Assembly: GCA_003554345.1 (NCBI GenBank)
Contig: PWGE01000414.1
Coordinates: forward strand, 1-10,355
Origin: T1SED10-198M sp003554345 [NCBI: Candidatus Sumerlaeota bacterium]
GTDB lineage: Bacteria; Sumerlaeota; T1SED10-198M
Direction of reading: 5' to 3'
DNA length: 10,355 bases
Shown in pieces: positions 71-10,355 of this stretch. The notes under the pieces were generated by a model. That model was not told the origin of the DNA, did no database searches, and saw nothing but the letters and a program-made list of their open reading frames with translations. The stretch's first letter is position 1. Every line of letters starts with the position of its first letter. Position numbers and translations under genes: made by a program.

Positions 71-130
71 TACCGGCAAATGAATAACAATCTTCACTCT
101 TGACCCTTTTCATTGGAAAAGAGGATGACA

Positions 131-1192
131 ATGCTCATTATTTATGCCCATCCCAATAAAGATGGTCACTGCGGTTGTTTCCTGGAAAATGTAGTAAAGA
201 TTTTAAGGGAGGAAAAAGTCGATTTTGAGATTGTGGACCTTTACCAGATAGGATTTTCTCCGTTATTGAAGCCAGAAGAGCATTATACTTCCGGTCAAAA
301 GCAGGTGGCTCCTCAGGTCCGGAAAATTCAGGAAAAGATTAAACAGCACGATAGGCTCATTTTTATTTATCCGACATGGTGGCAAAATGTGCCGGCTATT
401 TTAAAGGGGTTTATTGACAGGGTTTTTCTGCCGGGATTTGGATTTTCTTACAAAGGGAAATTGCCCCGTGGATTGCTTAAAGAAAAAAAAGCCCTTATTT
501 TTACCAGTACCGGCGCTCCGAGATATATTACGAAAATTCTTTATGGGGACCGGAGCGTCAAGGTCATCAAGAAGGATATCCTCTCTTTTTGTGGCATTAA
601 ATCAGATGCTTTTGTTATTGATAATGCGAAGCATTTTTCTGATACCCAAAAAAATCGTATTAACAGAGTGGTTTCAAAAGCGTTGAAAAGATTCTTTACT
701 CTCTTATTTGTTTCTTTTCTTGTTTTACCCGGTTTTTCTCTCTCCCGAATAGATAACTGGCAGGATGTCAATGAGAAAAAGTGCTGGCTGTCAGGAGATG
801 AGAAGCAGGAAGTTACTTCAAAAGAGGTGGTATCTTCTGAAAATATGTACTTATGTGCATTGGCTGTTCGGGCTTTGAGACAAGAGGGAAAAGCTGAAGC
901 TCTTTACCTCGATATTCCCGAACTATCTGCTGTTAGTATTCTTGCCAGGTGGCATCTTGCCGAAATTAAGCGTCGAAATCATAAGATCGAAGAATGCTGG
1001 CAAATCCCGGAAAAAATAATACGGCTTCAGCCTGATTATGTGCCGGCAAGGATCAGACTTGCATATGTTTTTCATATAAAAGAGAAATATGATGAGTGCC
1101 TTGATGTGGTTAGCAGGATTCAGGAGAAGTGTTCAGACAATTTGGATACGGGTAGCCGTATATGTACCCATTTGATGACTGGTGGAACATAA
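131..1192 (+). CDS. Flavodoxin-fold NAD(P)H:quinone oxidoreductase-like protein, reading through into TPR sequence
   Basis: Residues 1-185 belong to the flavodoxin-2 (MdaB/KefF/NQO-like) family, cytoplasmic FMN/FAD proteins that reduce quinones or similar acceptors with NAD(P)H. The sequence shows the N-terminal strand LIIYAHPN, the PTWW motif near residues 81-84, and the LKGFIDRVFLPGF signature near 92-104. ATG 131 is chosen because AAGAGG (119-124) lies six bases upstream; in-frame TTG 113 and ATG 125 are poorly placed. The family is usually about 190 residues, but this frame continues to TAA 1190-1192 (353 residues), adding a hydrophobic segment (about 186-204) and TPR-like helices. That extension is probably a neighbouring gene in the same frame: a TGA at 684-686, one frame away, overlaps a possible TTG start at 683 (TTGA), and an A7 run at 648-654 sits just before. 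The family assignment is firm; exact substrate and true C-terminus are not. Confidence 0.8.
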   Translation: MLIIYAHPNKDGHCGCFLENVVKILREEKVDFEIVDLYQIGFSPLLKPEEHYTSGQKQVAPQVRKIQEKIKQHDRLIFIYPTWWQNVPAILKGFIDRVFLPGFGFSYKGKLPRGLLKEKKALIFTSTGAPRYITKILYGDRSVKVIKKDILSFCGIKSDAFVIDNAKHFSDTQKNRINRVVSKALKRFFTLLFVSFLVLPGFSLSRIDNWQDVNEKKCWLSGDEKQEVTSKEVVSSENMYLCALAVRALRQEGKAEALYLDIPELSAVSILARWHLAEIKRRNHKIEECWQIPEKIIRLQPDYVPARIRLAYVFHIKEKYDECLDVVSRIQEKCSDNLDTGSRICTHLMTGGT

Positions 1193-3544: not shown

Positions 3545-3601
3545 ATAATGACAATAGACTTCACCGGTAACTAAAGTATGTCATACATCTTTAACAACAC
3601 C

Positions 3602-3639
3602 GCATAATATAAGAACTGTTCCGGGAACAGGGATTATGC
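3602..3639. repeat. Two-tier inverted repeat
   Basis: GCATAAT (3602-3608) pairs with ATTATGC (3633-3639), and inside it CTGTTC (3616-3621) pairs with GAACAG (3625-3630) around a CGG loop. The internal loop is asymmetric (seven bases against two). No T run follows on either strand, so it does not look like a rho-independent terminator. It starts 57 bases after the prenyl synthase stop and could be an RNA-stabilising 3' structure or a protein-binding site. Confidence 0.5.
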
Positions 3640-3695
3640 CTGGCTATGTGAGGTGAAATGCGGGCCCTGAAATAAAAAATCACTCAAAATCCGGT

Positions 3696-3709
3696 TGTTG
3701 TAGACAACA
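3696..3709. repeat. Short palindrome TGTTGT-AG-ACAACA
   Basis: This is a 6+2+6 perfect inverted repeat in the gene-free region, with no T run after it. As RNA it can only form five pairs around a four-base loop. It has the size of a dimeric regulator site, but there is no adjacent promoter or regulator gene to support that. Confidence 0.3.
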
Positions 3710-4102
3710 GTGGTAATTATAATTGTCCAGGCGGAAGAAGTTTGAAGAGCCAAAATATTTGCCATCCTCAAAAATACCTCTGCACGTTCAGACAATAGAT
3801 CTCGTAAAGAAGTTACCGGAAAAATATATAAAAATTCAAAAGTTGTATTGATGCAGAAAATGTACAGGTCAGGTAACCGTAAACAGCAAAAATGGCAACG
3901 CTTATACCAGGCAAAGGAGTATTACCAATCCCGTCAAAAAGACTTTAAATAACCTTTTCGTGGTATTATCGATCTTCCTCTCATAGTTTACCCGGGCGGG
4001 AATAGCACGGGTGGTACTTTTACTCGTCGAATTCAGCTGAATAAATAAAATTATATACCGTAGCAGTATGAAATGACAAATCAGTGAAAGATACACTGCT
4101 GT

Positions 4103-4147
4103 CGGGGTTATCTCTTAATGCCAGGACAACCATAAGAGGTTATCCCG
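4103..4147 (+). terminator. Possible terminator or structured RNA hairpin
   Basis: Bases 4103-4117 pair with 4133-4147 over 15 positions with one T/T mismatch and two G-T pairs. The core is CTCTTA/TAAGAG and the base of the stem is CGGG with CCCG, around a 15-base loop. On the plus strand a TTTT follows two bases later (GTG then TTTTG), which is a weak terminator tail. It lies about 560 bases after the prenyl synthase, so it may instead end an unidentified transcript in the gap. Confidence 0.35.
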
Positions 4148-4199
4148 GTGTTTTGTATTATTAACCTCTCTCTTCAGATCTTGCGGGTTCTATGTGTTG

Positions 4200-4298
4200 A
4201 TGAATATTAAAAAATTTCTACTGCAGCCCTGGAATAATTATCTGATCATTTCAATCTTTTTCTTGCAGATACTGAATTGTTATGAAATGGGGAGGTAA
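4200..4298 (+). CDS. Hypothetical 32-residue hydrophobic micro-ORF
   Basis: ATG 4200 to TAA 4296-4298 encodes MNIKKFLLQPWNNYLIISI followed by FFLQILNCYEMGR, which could form one membrane segment. There is no clear ribosome site before it, and AT-rich DNA gives such frames by chance. Its last codons (GGG AGG TAA) form the ribosome site of the next micro-ORF. Confidence 0.15.
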   Translation: MNIKKFLLQPWNNYLIISIFFLQILNCYEMGR

Positions 4299-4302
4299 AT
4301 CG

Positions 4303-4344
4303 ATGATACATTTAACGTACAATTCTTTATATTTCATGCTATAA
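4303..4344 (+). CDS. Possible 13-residue leader peptide
   Basis: A strong ribosome site, GGGGAGG (4289-4295), stands seven bases before ATG 4303. The frame encodes MIHLTYNSLYFML and stops at TAA 4342-4344, thirty bases before the transglutaminase-fold gene. If translated, it would lie on a transcript starting further upstream, because its stop codon is within the -10 element of the promoter at 4337-4345. Confidence 0.25.
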   Translation: MIHLTYNSLYFML

Positions 4345-4345
4345 T
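4337..4345 (+). promoter_or_regulatory. Extended -10 promoter for the transglutaminase-fold gene
   Basis: TGCTATAAT is a perfect extended -10 element (TGN plus TATAAT). The -35 is weak: CGTACA at 4316-4321, 18 bases upstream, matches only the ACA end, which fits the extended -10 class. Start of transcription is expected near 4352, leaving a short leader with the ribosome site AAAGGAG (4361-4367) seven bases before ATG 4375. Confidence 0.7.
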
Positions 4346-4374
4346 ACCCCAAACCAATAAAAAGGAGTGGCGGT

Positions 4375-5841
4375 ATGAAACGAGCAGTGTTCTTATGGGT
4401 TATCATTACTACTGCTTCTTTGTTAATGGGCGGAAATGAGTTGCCTCCTTACACCGAATTTATTGAATCTATGCGGGAGCGTAAAGAAGCGGGTGAGTTT
4501 TCCAGTGTACACCAGCGTATAGAAGAGTATTTAAATGAATATCCCCAATTGGATAAAGACAGGGTAAGGGAGTTGCAGACAATTGTTGATATAATGGAAC
4601 GCATTGATTTTGACTTTTCTCTGACCCGGGAGGAACTTCTTGATACACTTGATAACGAAATTGAATTATTTGAACCGGAGGAACTGGAACAATGGAAAGA
4701 AAAGGGATTGATTCAGTCAAAGGTGATCGATGATACCACCTATTTTTTTCGCAAAACCATCCCCAATATTTTTTTCCGTTCCCGGGAAATACGAGCGCGG
4801 CGTAAAACGCCTGCCAGTGAACTGCCTCTTGCCCTGGTAGAATCTTCTCAGGAAGTGATTTCTGCATATAAGAATGAGTACAATTATTATCATTTGCCCA
4901 TTACAAGGGTGATACGTTTAACCAATACCATAGACAAAGAACTTGAGACAGCAGACTCAATGGAAGTGTGGCAACCCTTTCCCCTGGAGTTGCCCTATCA
5001 AAGCAGTATAGAGTTTTTTGAATATTCACCGGGCTTACAGTATTCTGCTCCTACCAGTAATCCGGTGAGGAATCTTTATTTTACCAGGCGTTTCTGGAAT
5101 TCAGGAGAAGAGAGCTTCTCAGCAACCTATCGTTTGATTCAGCGGGCACGCTATAAGAAAGTCGACTCTGAAAGAATAGAACCTCTCCCTGACCCGAAAC
5201 CTGCCATTGCCTTTTATCTGGAAGAAAAAATGCCCCATATTCAATATGAAGAACCAATTCGTAATACTGTGGATGAGATAGTTGAAGATGAGAATAACCC
5301 TTATTATATGGCGAGACGAATTTATGACTGGTTTGAAGATGAAATAATATTCAGCTATTCACCTGATTATGCAACTATTGATAATCTTTCCAGACAGGTT
5401 TATGATGACGGATATGGTGATAGTGTGCAGATTTCTCTTCTTTTCATGACGATGTGTCGGTATGCAGGTATTCCGGCTCGCTGGCAGGGGGGCTGGCTGA
5501 TATATTCTGAATATAAGGAACCACATGCCTGGGTGGAACTTTTTCTGCCTCCTTATGGTTGGTTACCTGTAGATCCCTCAGTTCCTGCCATTTTTAATGC
5601 TACATCTCATCCTGAAGTATCTTCAGATGATATTGTAACTGCGATCGACTTTTACTTTGGTAGTATGGACCGGCATCGACTGGTATTTTCAAGATCTTTT
5701 GATTATACTCTTTATCCTTCTAAAAGTGGAAAACGCACAGATCCCGTCGCTTTTTTTGAAGGAGAAATAGAAGTGAATGAAAAGCCCCTCTTTTTTGATG
5801 AATATGATTTTTCTGTTGAAATACTGGCCGAAGAGAAATAA
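4375..5841 (+). CDS. Exported transglutaminase-fold protein with Ser in place of the catalytic Cys
   Basis: The 488 residues begin with a signal peptide (about 1-20, ending SLLMGG; no lipobox cysteine), so the protein acts outside the cytoplasm. Residues about 170-290 form a beta-rich region of the kind preceding bacterial transglutaminase cores; residues about 300-405 are the core. It contains GYGDSVQISLLF (346-357), CRYAGIPARWQGGW (361-374), HAWVELF (384-390) and GWLPVDPS (395-402). The His384 and Asp400 of the catalytic triad are clear, but counting back from GIPAR, the nucleophile position is Ser350 (codon AGT at 5422-5424) where the family has Cys, typically in a GDC motif. It could be an inactive binding protein or have a different chemistry; a TGT-to-AGT sequence error is also possible. 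ATG 4375 has a good ribosome site and an extended -10 promoter. It appears to be a single-gene unit. Confidence 0.85.
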   Translation: MKRAVFLWVIITTASLLMGGNELPPYTEFIESMRERKEAGEFSSVHQRIEEYLNEYPQLDKDRVRELQTIVDIMERIDFDFSLTREELLDTLDNEIELFEPEELEQWKEKGLIQSKVIDDTTYFFRKTIPNIFFRSREIRARRKTPASELPLALVESSQEVISAYKNEYNYYHLPITRVIRLTNTIDKELETADSMEVWQPFPLELPYQSSIEFFEYSPGLQYSAPTSNPVRNLYFTRRFWNSGEESFSATYRLIQRARYKKVDSERIEPLPDPKPAIAFYLEEKMPHIQYEEPIRNTVDEIVEDENNPYYMARRIYDWFEDEIIFSYSPDYATIDNLSRQVYDDGYGDSVQISLLFMTMCRYAGIPARWQGGWLIYSEYKEPHAWVELFLPPYGWLPVDPSVPAIFNATSHPEVSSDDIVTAIDFYFGSMDRHRLVFSRSFDYTLYPSKSGKRTDPVAFFEGEIEVNEKPLFFDEYDFSVEILAEEK

Positions 5842-6966: not shown

Positions 6967-7004
6967 AAAAACCGGCGGAAATTTTTATTCCGCCGGTTTT
7001 TTTT
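6967..7004. terminator. Bidirectional rho-independent terminator
   Basis: ACCGGCGGAA (6971-6980) pairs perfectly with TTCCGCCGGT (6988-6997) around a seven-base loop. It is followed by a T run (to 7002) on the plus strand and preceded by AAAA (6967-6970), which is a T run on the minus strand. It lies between the convergent dapB and carboxypeptidase genes and should serve both; the T run overlaps the peptidase stop codon region. Confidence 0.9.
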
Positions 7005-8955
7005 ATTGCTCCGTAGGTTCCAGACGTTGTATTTCGCCCTCCAGAATAGCGTTGATAACAGCTTTCATGGCGTTTTTATGCTTCTCCTGGTATGTTTCAA
7101 TAAGCTCAGGAGTTGCGCCGTCATAATAAACCACCTGGCCTTTTTCATAAGAATCCAGCTCAAGAGAAAGAGCCGGCGTCCGCAATTCTTTATGCATCCA
7201 GACATTGTGACTGCCCTGACGTGATGTATGATGATGCCAGTAGTATTCCGTATAATCATCTCCATACATTGCTTCAGCATAAATACGGCCAACTTTTTCC
7301 ACAAGCTCCAGGTATTTTTGATCACCTTCGCTGTCCGCATACTGTGAAGTGACAAAACCGGCACTGCATATTGAACCCAGACTGTGAAAAAAGAACGATG
7401 CCCAGGGGTCTGTTTCTTCCGTAAATGCCATGATAGCCTGTGTTTCAGGTTCAGAGGCAGGCTCGGGACCGCGGTAGATTTCTGCATCAGGATCATCTGT
7501 CTGCGGCGTTCCTTCAGGAGGCAGCTCTTCCCAGTGAGCAGGGAAATTACGGTTAATATCTACACCGGCAGCGTTTTTTCTTAGATAACGGGGATATCCT
7601 GTTTCCAGCTTTCTCTTGCGCTCGTCCAGAGTTACACATGGTATGGCGGCAATGCCCACTTTTTCCACCAGTTCAGGGCTTTCTTTCAGAATCTTTTTCA
7701 AAGCACCCAGAATGAGCTCTGGTCCGGACTCTGAAACATGTACTGCACCGATAAAAGCAATCATCTTTTCCTGGTTGCCTGCCAATAATGCTTCTAAAGG
7801 ACGACCTTCTACCGTTTCCCCGAATTTTTCTGTCTCGATGAGATCAGGATACATTTCGATAAGCTCTGTCTGTTTTTCCTCGATAGTCTCCAGAGACCAC
7901 CATACCTCTGGATGATACATACGTACCTTTGCCGGGTAGACCCGAAAATTTTTCCCGTCTGGTGTCACCCAGTAGTAATAACTGTAACCATCTGAAACAG
8001 GTTTGGTGTCAAGATATTCATAGACCCCTTCCTCATCGGGTTCCAGGTTCCCGGAAAAAAGCTTCTCTCCTCCTTTAACACCTGGATTTTCGTCATTTCT
8101 GCGACTGGCATTACGATAAATATGCAGCCTGGTCTCCTCGTCGTTGTTTTCCTGAGCCTGCGTAAATTCATCTGTGGCTTGAAAGGAAAATTTGATGCCT
8201 TCTGGTGTACGAAGTGCTTCTAATTCTTCGAAAGCCGGTTTGACTTCCTCAGACGGCTGATGGTCTGCAGGAGCTGAATCCTCGTAAAGTTTATTGATTT
8301 CATTTTTACTCAAGGGCCTGTTGAATATCTTTACCTCATCCAGTGAGCCTCTAAAGGCATTAAAAGGCCTTTCAGCACTTCCCAGGTAAAAGGTGTCAGG
8401 AAAACCGGTTACCTTTCCTGTGCATTCCTGACTGGCGGTAAGATTGCCGTTTTGAAAAAGTCGAACTTCTTTGCCATTGTAAGTAACTGCGATATGCATC
8501 CATTCATACATCGGAATATGATCTCCAACAACCGGGTGATAGGGGGTTTCGTCCGTGTGTATATAAAGGGTCAATTTTTGATTGTTTTCAGCATAAAAAA
8601 GCTGATAGCCTCTCTGAGAACCGCCGTTGATGATAATGCCGTCCCATCGGGTGCCGGTGTTATCCCGGTATACCCAGGCACTGAGCGTAAAAGAGTCTTC
8701 AAGATGAAGAGGTTCCTTATCTTCGAAAACCACGTGAGAATCCATTTCTCCGGGAAAAGAGAGAGCGGTGTTTTGAATACCTTCTACTCTTTCTACATTA
8801 CCTTTGATTTGTCCATGAATCCCATGAGGTCCGGAATCTTTAACTGTTTGATTCTCTTCGTCAAAGTTCCACCAGGCTATTAATCCGTTATCTTCTTCTG
8901 CTGCTGAAAAGATAAAAAGGATAAATATCAAGCATAGTGTAAGTCTTCTTATCAC
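7003..8955 (-). CDS. Secreted M14-family metallocarboxypeptidase with N-terminal LamG domain
   Basis: This 650-residue exported protein has a signal peptide (1-19, ending FSAA), a LamG/concanavalin-like domain (about 25-226, starting LIAWWNFDE and ending SLDEVKIFNRPL), a linker and beta-rich segment (about 240-345), and an M14 zinc carboxypeptidase domain (about 355-640). Catalytic residues are complete: zinc ligands His406 and Glu409 (HVSE) and His524 (FFHSLGS), the GVDINRNFP motif (464-472), RGPEPASEPET (495-505), and the general base Glu599 (TPALSLEL). It probably degrades extracellular peptides, with LamG binding a glycan or surface; substrate is not predictable. GTG 8953-8955 is chosen over an upstream TTG (8980-8982) because AGGAGG (8961-8966) is five bases before it and the product then begins directly with the signal peptide. 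The gene has its own strong promoter. Confidence 0.92.
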   Translation of the reverse strand: MIRRLTLCLIFILFIFSAAEEDNGLIAWWNFDEENQTVKDSGPHGIHGQIKGNVERVEGIQNTALSFPGEMDSHVVFEDKEPLHLEDSFTLSAWVYRDNTGTRWDGIIINGGSQRGYQLFYAENNQKLTLYIHTDETPYHPVVGDHIPMYEWMHIAVTYNGKEVRLFQNGNLTASQECTGKVTGFPDTFYLGSAERPFNAFRGSLDEVKIFNRPLSKNEINKLYEDSAPADHQPSEEVKPAFEELEALRTPEGIKFSFQATDEFTQAQENNDEETRLHIYRNASRRNDENPGVKGGEKLFSGNLEPDEEGVYEYLDTKPVSDGYSYYYWVTPDGKNFRVYPAKVRMYHPEVWWSLETIEEKQTELIEMYPDLIETEKFGETVEGRPLEALLAGNQEKMIAFIGAVHVSESGPELILGALKKILKESPELVEKVGIAAIPCVTLDERKRKLETGYPRYLRKNAAGVDINRNFPAHWEELPPEGTPQTDDPDAEIYRGPEPASEPETQAIMAFTEETDPWASFFFHSLGSICSAGFVTSQYADSEGDQKYLELVEKVGRIYAEAMYGDDYTEYYWHHHTSRQGSHNVWMHKELRTPALSLELDSYEKGQVVYYDGATPELIETYQEKHKNAMKAVINAILEGEIQRLEPTEQ

Positions 8956-8960
8956 TTTAA

Positions 8961-8966
8961 CCTCCT
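8961..8966 (-). promoter_or_regulatory. Ribosome binding site fixing the carboxypeptidase start
   Basis: On the minus strand this is a perfect AGGAGG with the five-base spacer TTAAA to GTG 8955. An in-frame TTG further upstream would place this site inside the coding sequence, and it lacks its own ribosome site. Confidence 0.85.
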
Positions 8967-8995
8967 GTTGAAAACGTTTCAAGCGGTTCCTTTAA

Positions 8996-9118: not shown

Positions 9119-10355
9119 TTAATAGAGAGACCAGGACTCTACAACAGTTGGTTCAAAGTGATTAAGTACGCGTCCCATTACATCCGCACGAACAGATTCT
9201 TCCTTGATAGTTTCAAAAGGAAAGGCAAGATGTACAACCTGATAGTCTCCCACATATTGAATACCGGCGATTCCCTGGTCTGTTCCATCATCATAGCGCA
9301 ATGCTTCTATTGAACCTGCACTGGTGTCATAAACATCTGTGAAGCGAGGATGATACATCAAACTGGAGGAGCCATCTTCAAAATCAAATGGATCGATATC
9401 ATAAAAGATACTCTGCTCGTTATCACCTCCACGTACTGTGTAAGTATCGGAACTTTCCGAAATGAACTCAGCATGGAGGGTATTCCTGAAAAAATCCTGA
9501 GCGTGTCCTTCGTGGTCGAGGTCCCAACCGATTTCAGAACCGGATACCATCAAATTTCCGCCTCCATCCAGAAAACTCTGTACCTGGTTGCGTTCAGCAT
9601 TATCAAATGTCCGGTAGTCGCCGGATTCCTGTCCCAGTATCCAGATGACAGTGTGGTAATCTTCCAGGTTTATATCACCATTTATGATGGCTTCATTGGC
9701 ACAGGAATCTATTCCATAATAATCGTTATCGACAATTGCCTGGGCATGCTGGGCGGTGTAATTAAAGAGGTTGACTTCAGGGATATAGAGATATTCGCGT
9801 GTTTGAGGGTAATCTCTTTGTGAGACCACGCCCTTGTCAAAGCGGTTATAGCCGTTTACGATAAGAATACTGGCTGTATCATCCCAGACGGTAAAGGTCA
9901 GGGTTTCCGTAGCGAAGGATTCACCGCCGCTGTTAAGAGCGGTTACCCTCACAAAATACAGTTCACCGGGTTCCAGATCGGTAAAAAGGTGTTCGGTGTC
10001 TTCCACTTCTCTGCCGTTGTCAAATCCAAAACCATCCCTGCTCAAATAGACCTTATAGCTTTCAGCCTCGTCACCTGCAATGACTTCTTCAGGAGTGCCA
10101 TCTGGATCTTGAGAAACGGGCTCCTCCCATTCAACCCTTACCTCATTTCCTCCTTCATTGGTGACTCTTAAATTCTCGGGAGGATTGGGGAGATATTTTA
10201 TAACATGATCTCCGCCGTGATCGCGATTATTGAGGTAATCCACCACTCCGTGGTAAAAACTTCTTGCCATAAAGTTGCGAAAATGAGGGTTACGATACAG
10301 CAGCATGTCTTCTTCATTGTCGTGAAAAATGGCTTCGATAAGAAAGCCCGGTACA
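9119..10355 (-). CDS. N-acetylmuramoyl-L-alanine amidase with FN3 and GATase-like domains (5' part outside the window)
   Basis: The frame is open to the window edge, so the N-terminal part is missing; 411 residues are visible. The first 50 match the end of the Amidase_3 fold: PGFLIEAIFHDN with the catalytic-type Glu (visible residue 7), then LLYRNPHFRNFMARSFYHGVVDYL. These zinc enzymes cut the bond between muramic acid and the stem peptide of peptidoglycan. A fibronectin type III domain follows (about 57-156: PPENLRV to LTFTV). The last part (about 161-400) has a glutamine-amidotransferase-like look: SILIVNGYNRF, VIWILGQES, FLDGGGNLMVSGSEIG, and a tail GDYQVVHLAFPFE. There is no sorting domain at the C-terminus (ends EPTVVESWSLY). 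The protein should be secreted, but its signal sequence is not in view. Internal ATG 10304-10306 lies within the amidase fold and is not the start. Confidence 0.85.
   Translation of the reverse strand, partial: VPGFLIEAIFHDNEEDMLLYRNPHFRNFMARSFYHGVVDYLNNRDHGGDHVIKYLPNPPENLRVTNEGGNEVRVEWEEPVSQDPDGTPEEVIAGDEAESYKVYLSRDGFGFDNGREVEDTEHLFTDLEPGELYFVRVTALNSGGESFATETLTFTVWDDTASILIVNGYNRFDKGVVSQRDYPQTREYLYIPEVNLFNYTAQHAQAIVDNDYYGIDSCANEAIINGDINLEDYHTVIWILGQESGDYRTFDNAERNQVQSFLDGGGNLMVSGSEIGWDLDHEGHAQDFFRNTLHAEFISESSDTYTVRGGDNEQSIFYDIDPFDFEDGSSSLMYHPRFTDVYDTSAGSIEALRYDDGTDQGIAGIQYVGDYQVVHLAFPFETIKEESVRADVMGRVLNHFEPTVVESWSLY

What the first reader, a model, noticed from the sequence alone, without database searches (positions are those of the whole stretch)
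5413..5577. Transglutaminase fold with Ser350 where the catalytic Cys belongs
GDS-VQISLLF...CRYAGIPARW aligns with the family pattern GDC...LLF...CR..GIPARW, and His384 and Asp400 are kept. The nucleophile alone has changed, giving a Ser-His-Asp set. The rest of the protein, its signal peptide, promoter and ribosome site are intact, which argues against simple decay. It may be a non-catalytic binder or an enzyme with altered chemistry.
Basis: partly seen in the sequence, partly recalled or inferred. Interest (0 to 1): 0.6.

Follow-up and report, generated by a model that had tools for sequence, protein, structure and literature searches.

The report
Transglutaminase-like protein lacking its catalytic cysteine
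A probably secreted bacterial protein keeps the transglutaminase fold but has serine in place of the cysteine that does the chemistry; it is most likely a once-active enzyme copy turned into a non-catalytic binding protein, a kind of change already known elsewhere.

Summary
The intact 488-aa ORF at 4375-5841 carries AGT (Ser350) at 5422-5424 in the nucleophile position of a strong Transglut_core match, with His384 and Asp400 kept. The only cysteine is Cys361, in the CR motif. The same genome holds a full-length sister with Cys (35-36% identity). All 37 other full-length relatives aligned (the sister and 36 from other genomes) have Cys. The tree pairs window and sister (98/98), the window branch about twice as long. 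The window protein departs at 19 of 59 conserved family positions (next highest 8), including the residue after the nucleophile and a C-terminal motif. So one copy of a duplication lost its nucleophile and diverged, yet the frame stayed open. The kept His and Asp do not argue for a working Ser-His-Asp triad: of 41 Cys-less rows examined, 40 of them spirochaete, 38 keep His and 41 keep Asp, whether the residue is Ala, Thr, Ser or Pro. Best reading: a probably secreted pseudo-transglutaminase (binder or regulator), a new member of a known kind. A serine enzyme is less likely. No close orthologue or reads were available. In passing: spirochaete Cys-less relatives sit behind an ECF sigma/anti-sigma-like gene pair.

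The parts
4375..5841 (+). Whole gene, 488 aa, probably secreted transglutaminase-like protein without catalytic Cys (stop included)
   Evidence: ORF; family match
4337..4345 (+). TGCTATAAT, extended -10-like promoter word
   Evidence: the two-hexamer scan listed no site here
4359..4367 (+). AAAAAGGAG, likely ribosome-binding site
   Evidence: by eye
4375..4434 (+). Probable signal peptide, residues 1-20, no lipobox Cys
   Evidence: By eye; hydropathy; only Cys is residue 361
5263..5577 (+). Transglut_core domain, residues 297-401
   Evidence: core model of residues 270-445 matches transglutaminase folds
5422..5424 (+). Ser350 (AGT) in the nucleophile position; Cys in 37 of 37 A1 relatives
5425..5427 (+). 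Val351; Gly in 37 of 37 A1 relatives
5455..5457 (+). Cys361 of the CR motif, the only Cys of the protein
5524..5526 (+). His384, kept
5527..5529 (+). Ala385; Asp in 37 of 37 A1 relatives
5572..5574 (+). Asp400, kept
5734..5766 (+). Residues 454-464, eroded form of the family motif RSDTVDFQRGE (window RTDPVAFFEGE)

Best explanation
A probably secreted pseudo-transglutaminase. A gene for an N-terminally extended transglutaminase-like protein was duplicated in this lineage (shown by the tree). One copy, the sister on contig C416, kept Cys-His-Asp. The window copy lost the Cys and diverged about twice as fast, but stayed an open, complete gene with the domain match and His/Asp in place (shown). 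Inferred: the domain no longer forms an acyl-enzyme; the old active-site groove binds a peptide, glycopeptide or protein partner, so the protein acts outside the membrane as a binder or regulator, perhaps of its active sister's substrate.
For: Cys in 37 of 37 other full-length relatives, Ser here. Sister with Cys in the same genome; window and sister are a 98/98 clade with end branches 1.03 and 0.52. Co-changes at 351 and 385 and in the C-terminal motif: 19 of 59 positions conserved at 90% or more, against 8 of 58 in the next most deviant of the 38 rows. No Cys besides Cys361. In a neutral simulation reaching 19 changed conserved positions, 0 of 1000 runs were free of stops (mean 8.6 stops). 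Separate losses elsewhere: spirochaete relatives with Ala/Ser/Thr/Pro, His kept in 38 and Asp in 41 of 41 Cys-less rows, window included. In Caulobacter HvyA, an exported transglutaminase homologue, C192S/A variants could not complement although they accumulated like wild type (PMC4241560, passages). The Cys-less transglutaminase-like domain of Cyk3 is important for stimulating chitin synthesis (PMC4758748, passages).
Against: No binding partner, no conserved neighbours of the window gene and no orthologue from another genome of its class, so selection for a new function is inferred, not measured. Changed conserved positions are no denser in the core (6 of 27) than outside it (13 of 32), so the change is not confined to the active site. 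Ser is the one replacement that could in principle still act. In Cyk3 mutating His and Asp together abolished function, so a kept His and Asp may still do chemistry or be needed for binding. The full-length fold model failed (pLDDT 34.9), and the core model (pLDDT 61.9) is too rough for active-site geometry.
Confidence: 0.68

Rival explanations
1. Serine-type enzyme: Ser350-His384-Asp400 is a working triad, so the protein is a slow esterase, amidase or acyltransferase with altered chemistry.
For: Ser, His and Asp are all present. PMC10318531 (passages) lists papain-like families with conserved Ser at this place and reports that bleomycin hydrolase and congopain keep some activity after Cys-to-Ser.
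Against: HvyA C192S is non-functional (PMC4241560, passages). Val351 and the lost C-terminal motif mark a changed site. His and Asp persist in relatives with Ala, Thr or Pro, so their presence is no sign of catalysis. In spirochaetes a Ser protein (L065) pairs with an Ala protein (L068) at 100/98, so Ser there swaps with Ala.
Confidence: 0.14
2. Relaxed or decaying copy: the gene has no current role and has simply not yet picked up a stop.
For: Long branch, many conserved positions changed both inside and outside the core (6 of 27 and 13 of 32), no orthologue to measure selection.
Against: 0 of 1000 neutral runs stop-free at 19 changed conserved positions; 10 of 1000 at 12; 95 of 1000 at 6; 278 of 1000 at 3. 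Codon-position G+C of the gene lies within the range of four neighbours. Start, likely ribosome site and 40 of 59 conserved positions intact. The simulation assumes that all counted changes came after selection ceased, so a recent release after adaptive change is not excluded.
Confidence: 0.13
3. Base error in the metagenome assembly turned a Cys codon into AGT.
For: AGT is one base away from a Cys codon; the genome is a 454-contig draft, 87.7% complete with 4.3% contamination; reads not available.
Against: The neighbouring residue and other conserved positions have changed as well, which a single error cannot explain.
Confidence: 0.05

Closest known systems
Active-type sister in the same genome (L001, contig C416) and the 36 other A1 proteins (35 from the same phylum; L026 from a genome of another phylum)
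   Same: Full-length homology, N-terminal extension, His and Asp, place in the tree
   Different: They have Cys-Gly, Asp after His and a C-terminal motif of the RSDTVDFQRGE kind; window has Ser-Val, Ala after His and a worn motif
Cyk3 of budding yeast (Cys-less transglutaminase-like domain)
   Same: His and Asp kept, Cys lost, domain functionally important (PMC4758748, passages)
   Different: Eukaryotic cytokinesis protein; no sequence comparison made here
Erythrocyte protein 4.2 (EPB42)
   Same: Inactive transglutaminase fold; appears among structural matches of the core model (7tvz_E, Z 7.2, a middling value); called catalytically inactive in PMC10318531 (passage)
   Different: Eukaryotic erythrocyte protein; its exact residue at the nucleophile place was not looked up
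RloB-type inactive transglutaminase with seven TM helices (Pseudomonas)
   Same: Bacterial, inactive transglutaminase domain predicted to face the periplasm (PMC12239564, passages)
   Different: Seven TM helices and an rlo operon; the window protein has no 19-residue stretch of mean hydropathy 1.6 or more
Inactive transglutaminase domains of polymorphic toxins
   Same: Exported bacterial domain with lost triad residue(s), proposed to bind peptides (PMC3482391, passages)
   Different: N-terminal domain before RHS repeats; no such repeat family was matched in the window protein
Spirochaetota TIG-transglutaminase family without Cys (L034 and relatives)
   Same: Cys replaced, His and Asp mostly kept
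   Different: IPT/TIG domains and ECF sigma/anti-sigma-like neighbours; separate loss in the tree

Membership tests
Transglut_core superfamily (PF01841) | Profile match over the cut-off | tested here: met
   77.2 bits against 23, residues 297-401
Transglut_core superfamily (PF01841) | Transglutaminase/papain-like fold | tested here: met
   Core model pLDDT 61.9, pTM 0.65; Foldseek top hits TglA (E 3.0e-4, TM by query 0.48, rmsd 7.0) and TgpA (E 3.7e-4, TM 0.48); VIA-align Z 10.9 to TglA, rmsd 4.1 over 147. Model confidence is moderate and the superpositions are loose.
Active transglutaminase-like enzymes | Catalytic Cys | tested here: not met
   Ser350; no other Cys but Cys361
Active transglutaminase-like enzymes | Catalytic His and Asp | tested here: met
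   His384 and Asp400
Active transglutaminase-like enzymes | Enzyme activity | not testable with these tools
   Needs protein
A1 family (full-length relatives aligned) | Full-length homology and place in the tree | tested here: met
   24-35% identity to the window protein; inside the A1 clade, 100/100
A1 family (full-length relatives aligned) | Cys-Gly, Asp after His, and C-terminal RSDTVDFQRGE-type motif | tested here: not met
RloB-type inactive transglutaminase (7TM) | Seven transmembrane helices | tested here: not met
   No 19-residue window with mean Kyte-Doolittle value of 1.6 or more in 488 aa; Pfam scan at E up to 1 listed only Transglut_core, Transglut_core3 and DUF433, the last two below cut-off
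Serine papain-like families (menin, DUF2272, DUF2145, DUF3750) | Profile match | tested here: not met
   None listed in the Pfam scan at E up to 1
Spirochaetota Cys-less TIG-transglutaminase family | IPT/TIG domains before the core | tested here: not met
   Not listed for the window protein; two stretches each in L034, L035 and L066
Spirochaetota Cys-less TIG-transglutaminase family | ECF sigma/anti-sigma-like genes just upstream | tested here: not met
   Nearest genes are polyprenyl synthetase upstream and DapB downstream
Pseudoenzyme kept by selection | Replacement conserved among orthologues, dN/dS under 1 | not testable with these tools
   Class search held only the window's own genome

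The most novel reading that the evidence does not exclude
Ser350 is a true nucleophile: after gene duplication a cysteine transglutaminase-like protein became a secreted serine hydrolase or acyltransferase, with Val351 and the rebuilt C-terminal motif reshaping the pocket for it. That would be a natural switch of nucleophile inside one paralogous pair, with the Cys parent type still present in the same cell.
Probability: 0.12. Interest if true: 0.65.

Novelty: new member of a known kind. Interest (0 to 1): 0.34.

Why it matters
It adds a clean bacterial example of nucleophile loss after duplication, with the Cys-bearing sister in the same genome as a natural control. Together with the spirochaete relatives it suggests that the transglutaminase fold without its Cys, but with His and Asp, is a recurring exported binding module. 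This can be tested, and it warns that annotation by Transglut_core match alone will call such proteins enzymes.

Tried and rejected
Chance or wrong frame: rejected. Another Cys in the active site: unlikely, only Cys361 exists, eleven residues on in the CR motif; no reliable model was available to place it. Shared origin with the spirochaete Cys-less family: not favoured, the window sits with its Cys sister at 98/98 inside the A1 clade at 100/100; the test of one joint clade was not run. A link between nucleophile loss and a bulky next residue: Cys rows have Gly/Ser/Ala/Thr next in 53 of 55, Cys-less rows have something else in 40 of 41, but the tree holds only 2 independent pairs on starred branches (3 on all) and the sign test has no power (median p 0.5), so it stays a hint.

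Led nowhere: full-length structure (3 sequences, pLDDT 34.9). Viral-contig scans for more sequences: none, one locus. NCBIfam listed nothing for the window protein at E up to 0.01. Shared neighbours of A1 genes, 38 loci examined: the largest clusters appear by eye to be reading frames overlapping the transglutaminase gene itself; a downstream gene is shared by 6 loci and two others by 4 each, and none of these is shared with the window. A tblastn of seven window ORFs at E up to 1e-5 found DapB, UbiA and polyprenyl synthetase in no locus but the window's own, within the stretches held (mostly 1.5 kb flanks); a remote match of the M14 peptidase appears in L024. Paper searches (capped listings, open-licence library only) listed no paper that I recognised as treating this protein or the spirochaete family; PMC7586716 (one passage) only lists a T. 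denticola gene annotated as transglutaminase. No survey of how often Ser occurs across all transglutaminases was made.

Rows dropped or biased: duplicates L058, L059 and L062 were left out of the spirochaete rows; most of those 47 rows were chosen by likeness to a Cys-less protein (three, L057, L060 and L061, came from a Transglut_core search of two genomes), so their share of Cys-less members is not a frequency. In one search, 22 of 96 rows (long or near-identical ones) were left out of the tree. The set: 52 distinct proteins, 48 Cys, 2 Ser, 1 Ala, 1 without the column.

Full report
OBSERVATION. The window is one whole contig (C423) of a draft genome of 2.55 Mb in 454 contigs, 87.7% complete. 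It encodes at 4375-5841 an intact 488-residue protein whose residues 297-401 match Transglut_core at 77.2 bits. The nucleophile position is Ser350, codon AGT at 5422-5424; His384 and Asp400 are present. The sole cysteine is Cys361 in the CR motif; 36 of 37 A1 relatives have Cys there too, the sister has Leu.

RELATIVES. The same genome holds two more Transglut_core proteins, both with Cys at the motif (for the third, L003, by eye). One of them, the sister on contig C416, is homologous nearly end to end at 35-36% identity. Of 99 genomes searched, 57 had some match to the window protein; one is the window's own, 39 are of the same phylum, 59 only of the same domain, and none is nearer than phylum. 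A class search returned only the window's own genome. From these I aligned 38 full-length or nearly full-length proteins (A1): the window protein, its sister, 35 from other genomes of the phylum and one (L026) from another phylum. Of the 37 besides the window, 37 have Cys at 350, Gly at 351 and Asp at 385. The window protein is the outlier: it departs at 19 of 59 columns that are at least 90% conserved in the others, against 8 of 58 for the next and 7 of 59 for the sister. The departures include Cys350Ser, Gly351Val, Asp385Ala, Asn439Ser and several residues of the C-terminal motif RSDTVDFQRGE. They are no denser in the core (6 of 27) than outside it (13 of 32). Asp385Ala alone is not a sign of inactivity, since other Cys-bearing rows here have Ala, Val or Arg there.

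HISTORY. In a maximum-likelihood tree of 74 core domains without columns 350 and 351, window and sister form a clade (98/98) inside the A1 clade (100/100), with end branches of 1.03 and 0.52. An earlier quick tree of 96 rows agrees (93). This reads as a duplication in the lineage followed by faster change in the copy that lost Cys. Decay is unlikely but not excluded: in neutral simulation from the window ORF, by the time 19 conserved positions had changed 0 of 1000 runs were free of stops (mean 8.6); at 12 changes 10 of 1000, at 6 changes 95, at 3 changes 278. The simulation assumes that the counted changes came after selection ceased.

DOES SER-HIS-ASP MEAN ANYTHING? A scan of named genomes brought in two spirochaete relatives, one with Ser (L034) and one with Ala (L035). 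Searching 198 genomes of L034's phylum with the L034 protein gave matches in 83, many of them weak or to the core only. Of 47 spirochaete rows read (mostly picked by likeness to a Cys-less protein, so not a frequency), the nucleophile is Ala in 19, Ser in 9, Cys in 7, Thr in 6, Pro in 2, Val in 2, Glu in 1 and Tyr in 1. Counting the window, 41 rows lack Cys; 38 keep His and 41 keep Asp. So His and Asp survive without any nucleophile, and their presence beside Ser350 is not evidence of a triad. One Ser protein (L065) pairs with an Ala protein (L068) at 100/98. In HvyA, an exported Caulobacter transglutaminase homologue, the C192S/A variants could not complement although they accumulated like wild type (PMC4241560, passages read). 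Against this, some papain-like enzymes keep partial activity after Cys-to-Ser, and several families with natural Ser have been proposed, without proof, to be active (PMC10318531, passages read). And in Cyk3, which lacks the Cys, changing His and Asp together abolished the domain's function (PMC4758748, passages): kept His and Asp can matter without the Cys, for reasons that paper's passages do not settle.

STRUCTURE. The full-length model failed (pLDDT 34.9). A model of residues 270-445 reached pLDDT 61.9, with Ser350 near the start of a helix (residues 348-363), where the nucleophile stands in this fold (recalled); His384 lies in a following strand (380-391) and Asp400 just after the next (395-399); the stretch before the helix is of low confidence. 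Best matches are TglA of S. pyogenes and TgpA of P. aeruginosa (Foldseek E 3.0e-4 and 3.7e-4, TM by query 0.48 each) and TglA at Z 10.9, rmsd 4.1 over 147 residues; the inactive protein 4.2 appears at Z 7.2, a middling value.

CONTEXT. Neighbours are a UbiA-type prenyltransferase and a polyprenyl synthetase upstream, DapB downstream, and an M14 carboxypeptidase and an fn3 protein on the other strand. None points to a partner; among 38 A1 loci the most widely shared gene that is not an overlapping frame occurs in 6. A likely ribosome site and a perfect extended -10-like word precede the gene; the two-hexamer promoter scan listed nothing there.

MECHANISM. Most likely (0.68) the protein is a secreted pseudo-transglutaminase that binds a peptide or a protein partner through the former active-site groove. 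Shown: Cys loss, domain match, duplication, faster divergence, kept His/Asp, open frame. Inferred: secretion, no catalysis, binding role, link to the sister's substrate. Known parallels are Cyk3 (PMC4758748, passages), protein 4.2 (PMC10318531, passage), RloB (PMC12239564, passages), polymorphic-toxin domains (PMC3482391, passages) and a 7TM inactive transglutaminase affecting vesicle production (PMC12096838, passages). The finding is therefore a new member of a known kind.

SIDE FINDING. In Spirochaetota the Cys-less proteins tested carry IPT/TIG domains before the core (L034, L035 and L066 over cut-off; L092 below it). In 28 of 40 loci examined a shared ECF-like sigma gene lies upstream on the same strand, and in 25 of 40 a second shared gene, zf-HC2-like where tested, lies upstream as well; a third shared frame occurs in 12 of 40. 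Pfam was run on two of these loci only: sigma-70 regions over cut-off in both, zf-HC2 over cut-off in L065 and just under it in L066. The 25 loci with both genes have Ala 14, Ser 5, Thr 5, Pro 1. The 12 loci without a sigma gene are the two with Cys (L087, L088) and ten (L092-L101) fetched with under 500 bases upstream of the frame, so absence there is untested. A pseudo-transglutaminase acting as a periplasmic partner of an anti-sigma factor is a testable idea that I did not follow further.

Noticed in passing
L062-L086 and L089-L091 (spirochaete loci): Cys-less TIG-transglutaminase genes lie downstream, same strand, of an ECF-like sigma gene (28 of 40 loci) and, in L062-L086, of a zf-HC2 anti-sigma-like gene (25 of 40) (Pfam on two loci only). 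They may form a periplasmic sensing arm of a sigma/anti-sigma switch.
   Followed up: partly
L092-L098: Seven 517-535 aa relatives, six on contigs of about 0.91-0.96 Mb and one on a 0.41 Mb contig (Borrelia-like by size, no name from a call), keep His and Asp with Ala, Val, Thr, Pro or Glu at the nucleophile.
   Followed up: partly
window 113-1192: One open frame joins a Flavodoxin_2 domain (residues 5-173) to about 185 residues of no known family with a signal-like hydrophobic stretch in between (by eye); it may be two genes read as one.
   Followed up: no
window 3545-4374: About 830 bases between the polyprenyl synthetase and the transglutaminase gene hold no listed ORF of 80 aa or more.
   Followed up: no
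window 9119-10306 (-); L105 35-625 and 977-2404: Three proteins of this genome end in ESWSLY, SSSWSLFK and SSSWSLFQ, perhaps a shared C-terminal tail.
   Followed up: no
window 7003-8982 (-): M14 zinc carboxypeptidase fused to a Laminin_G_3 domain.
   Followed up: no
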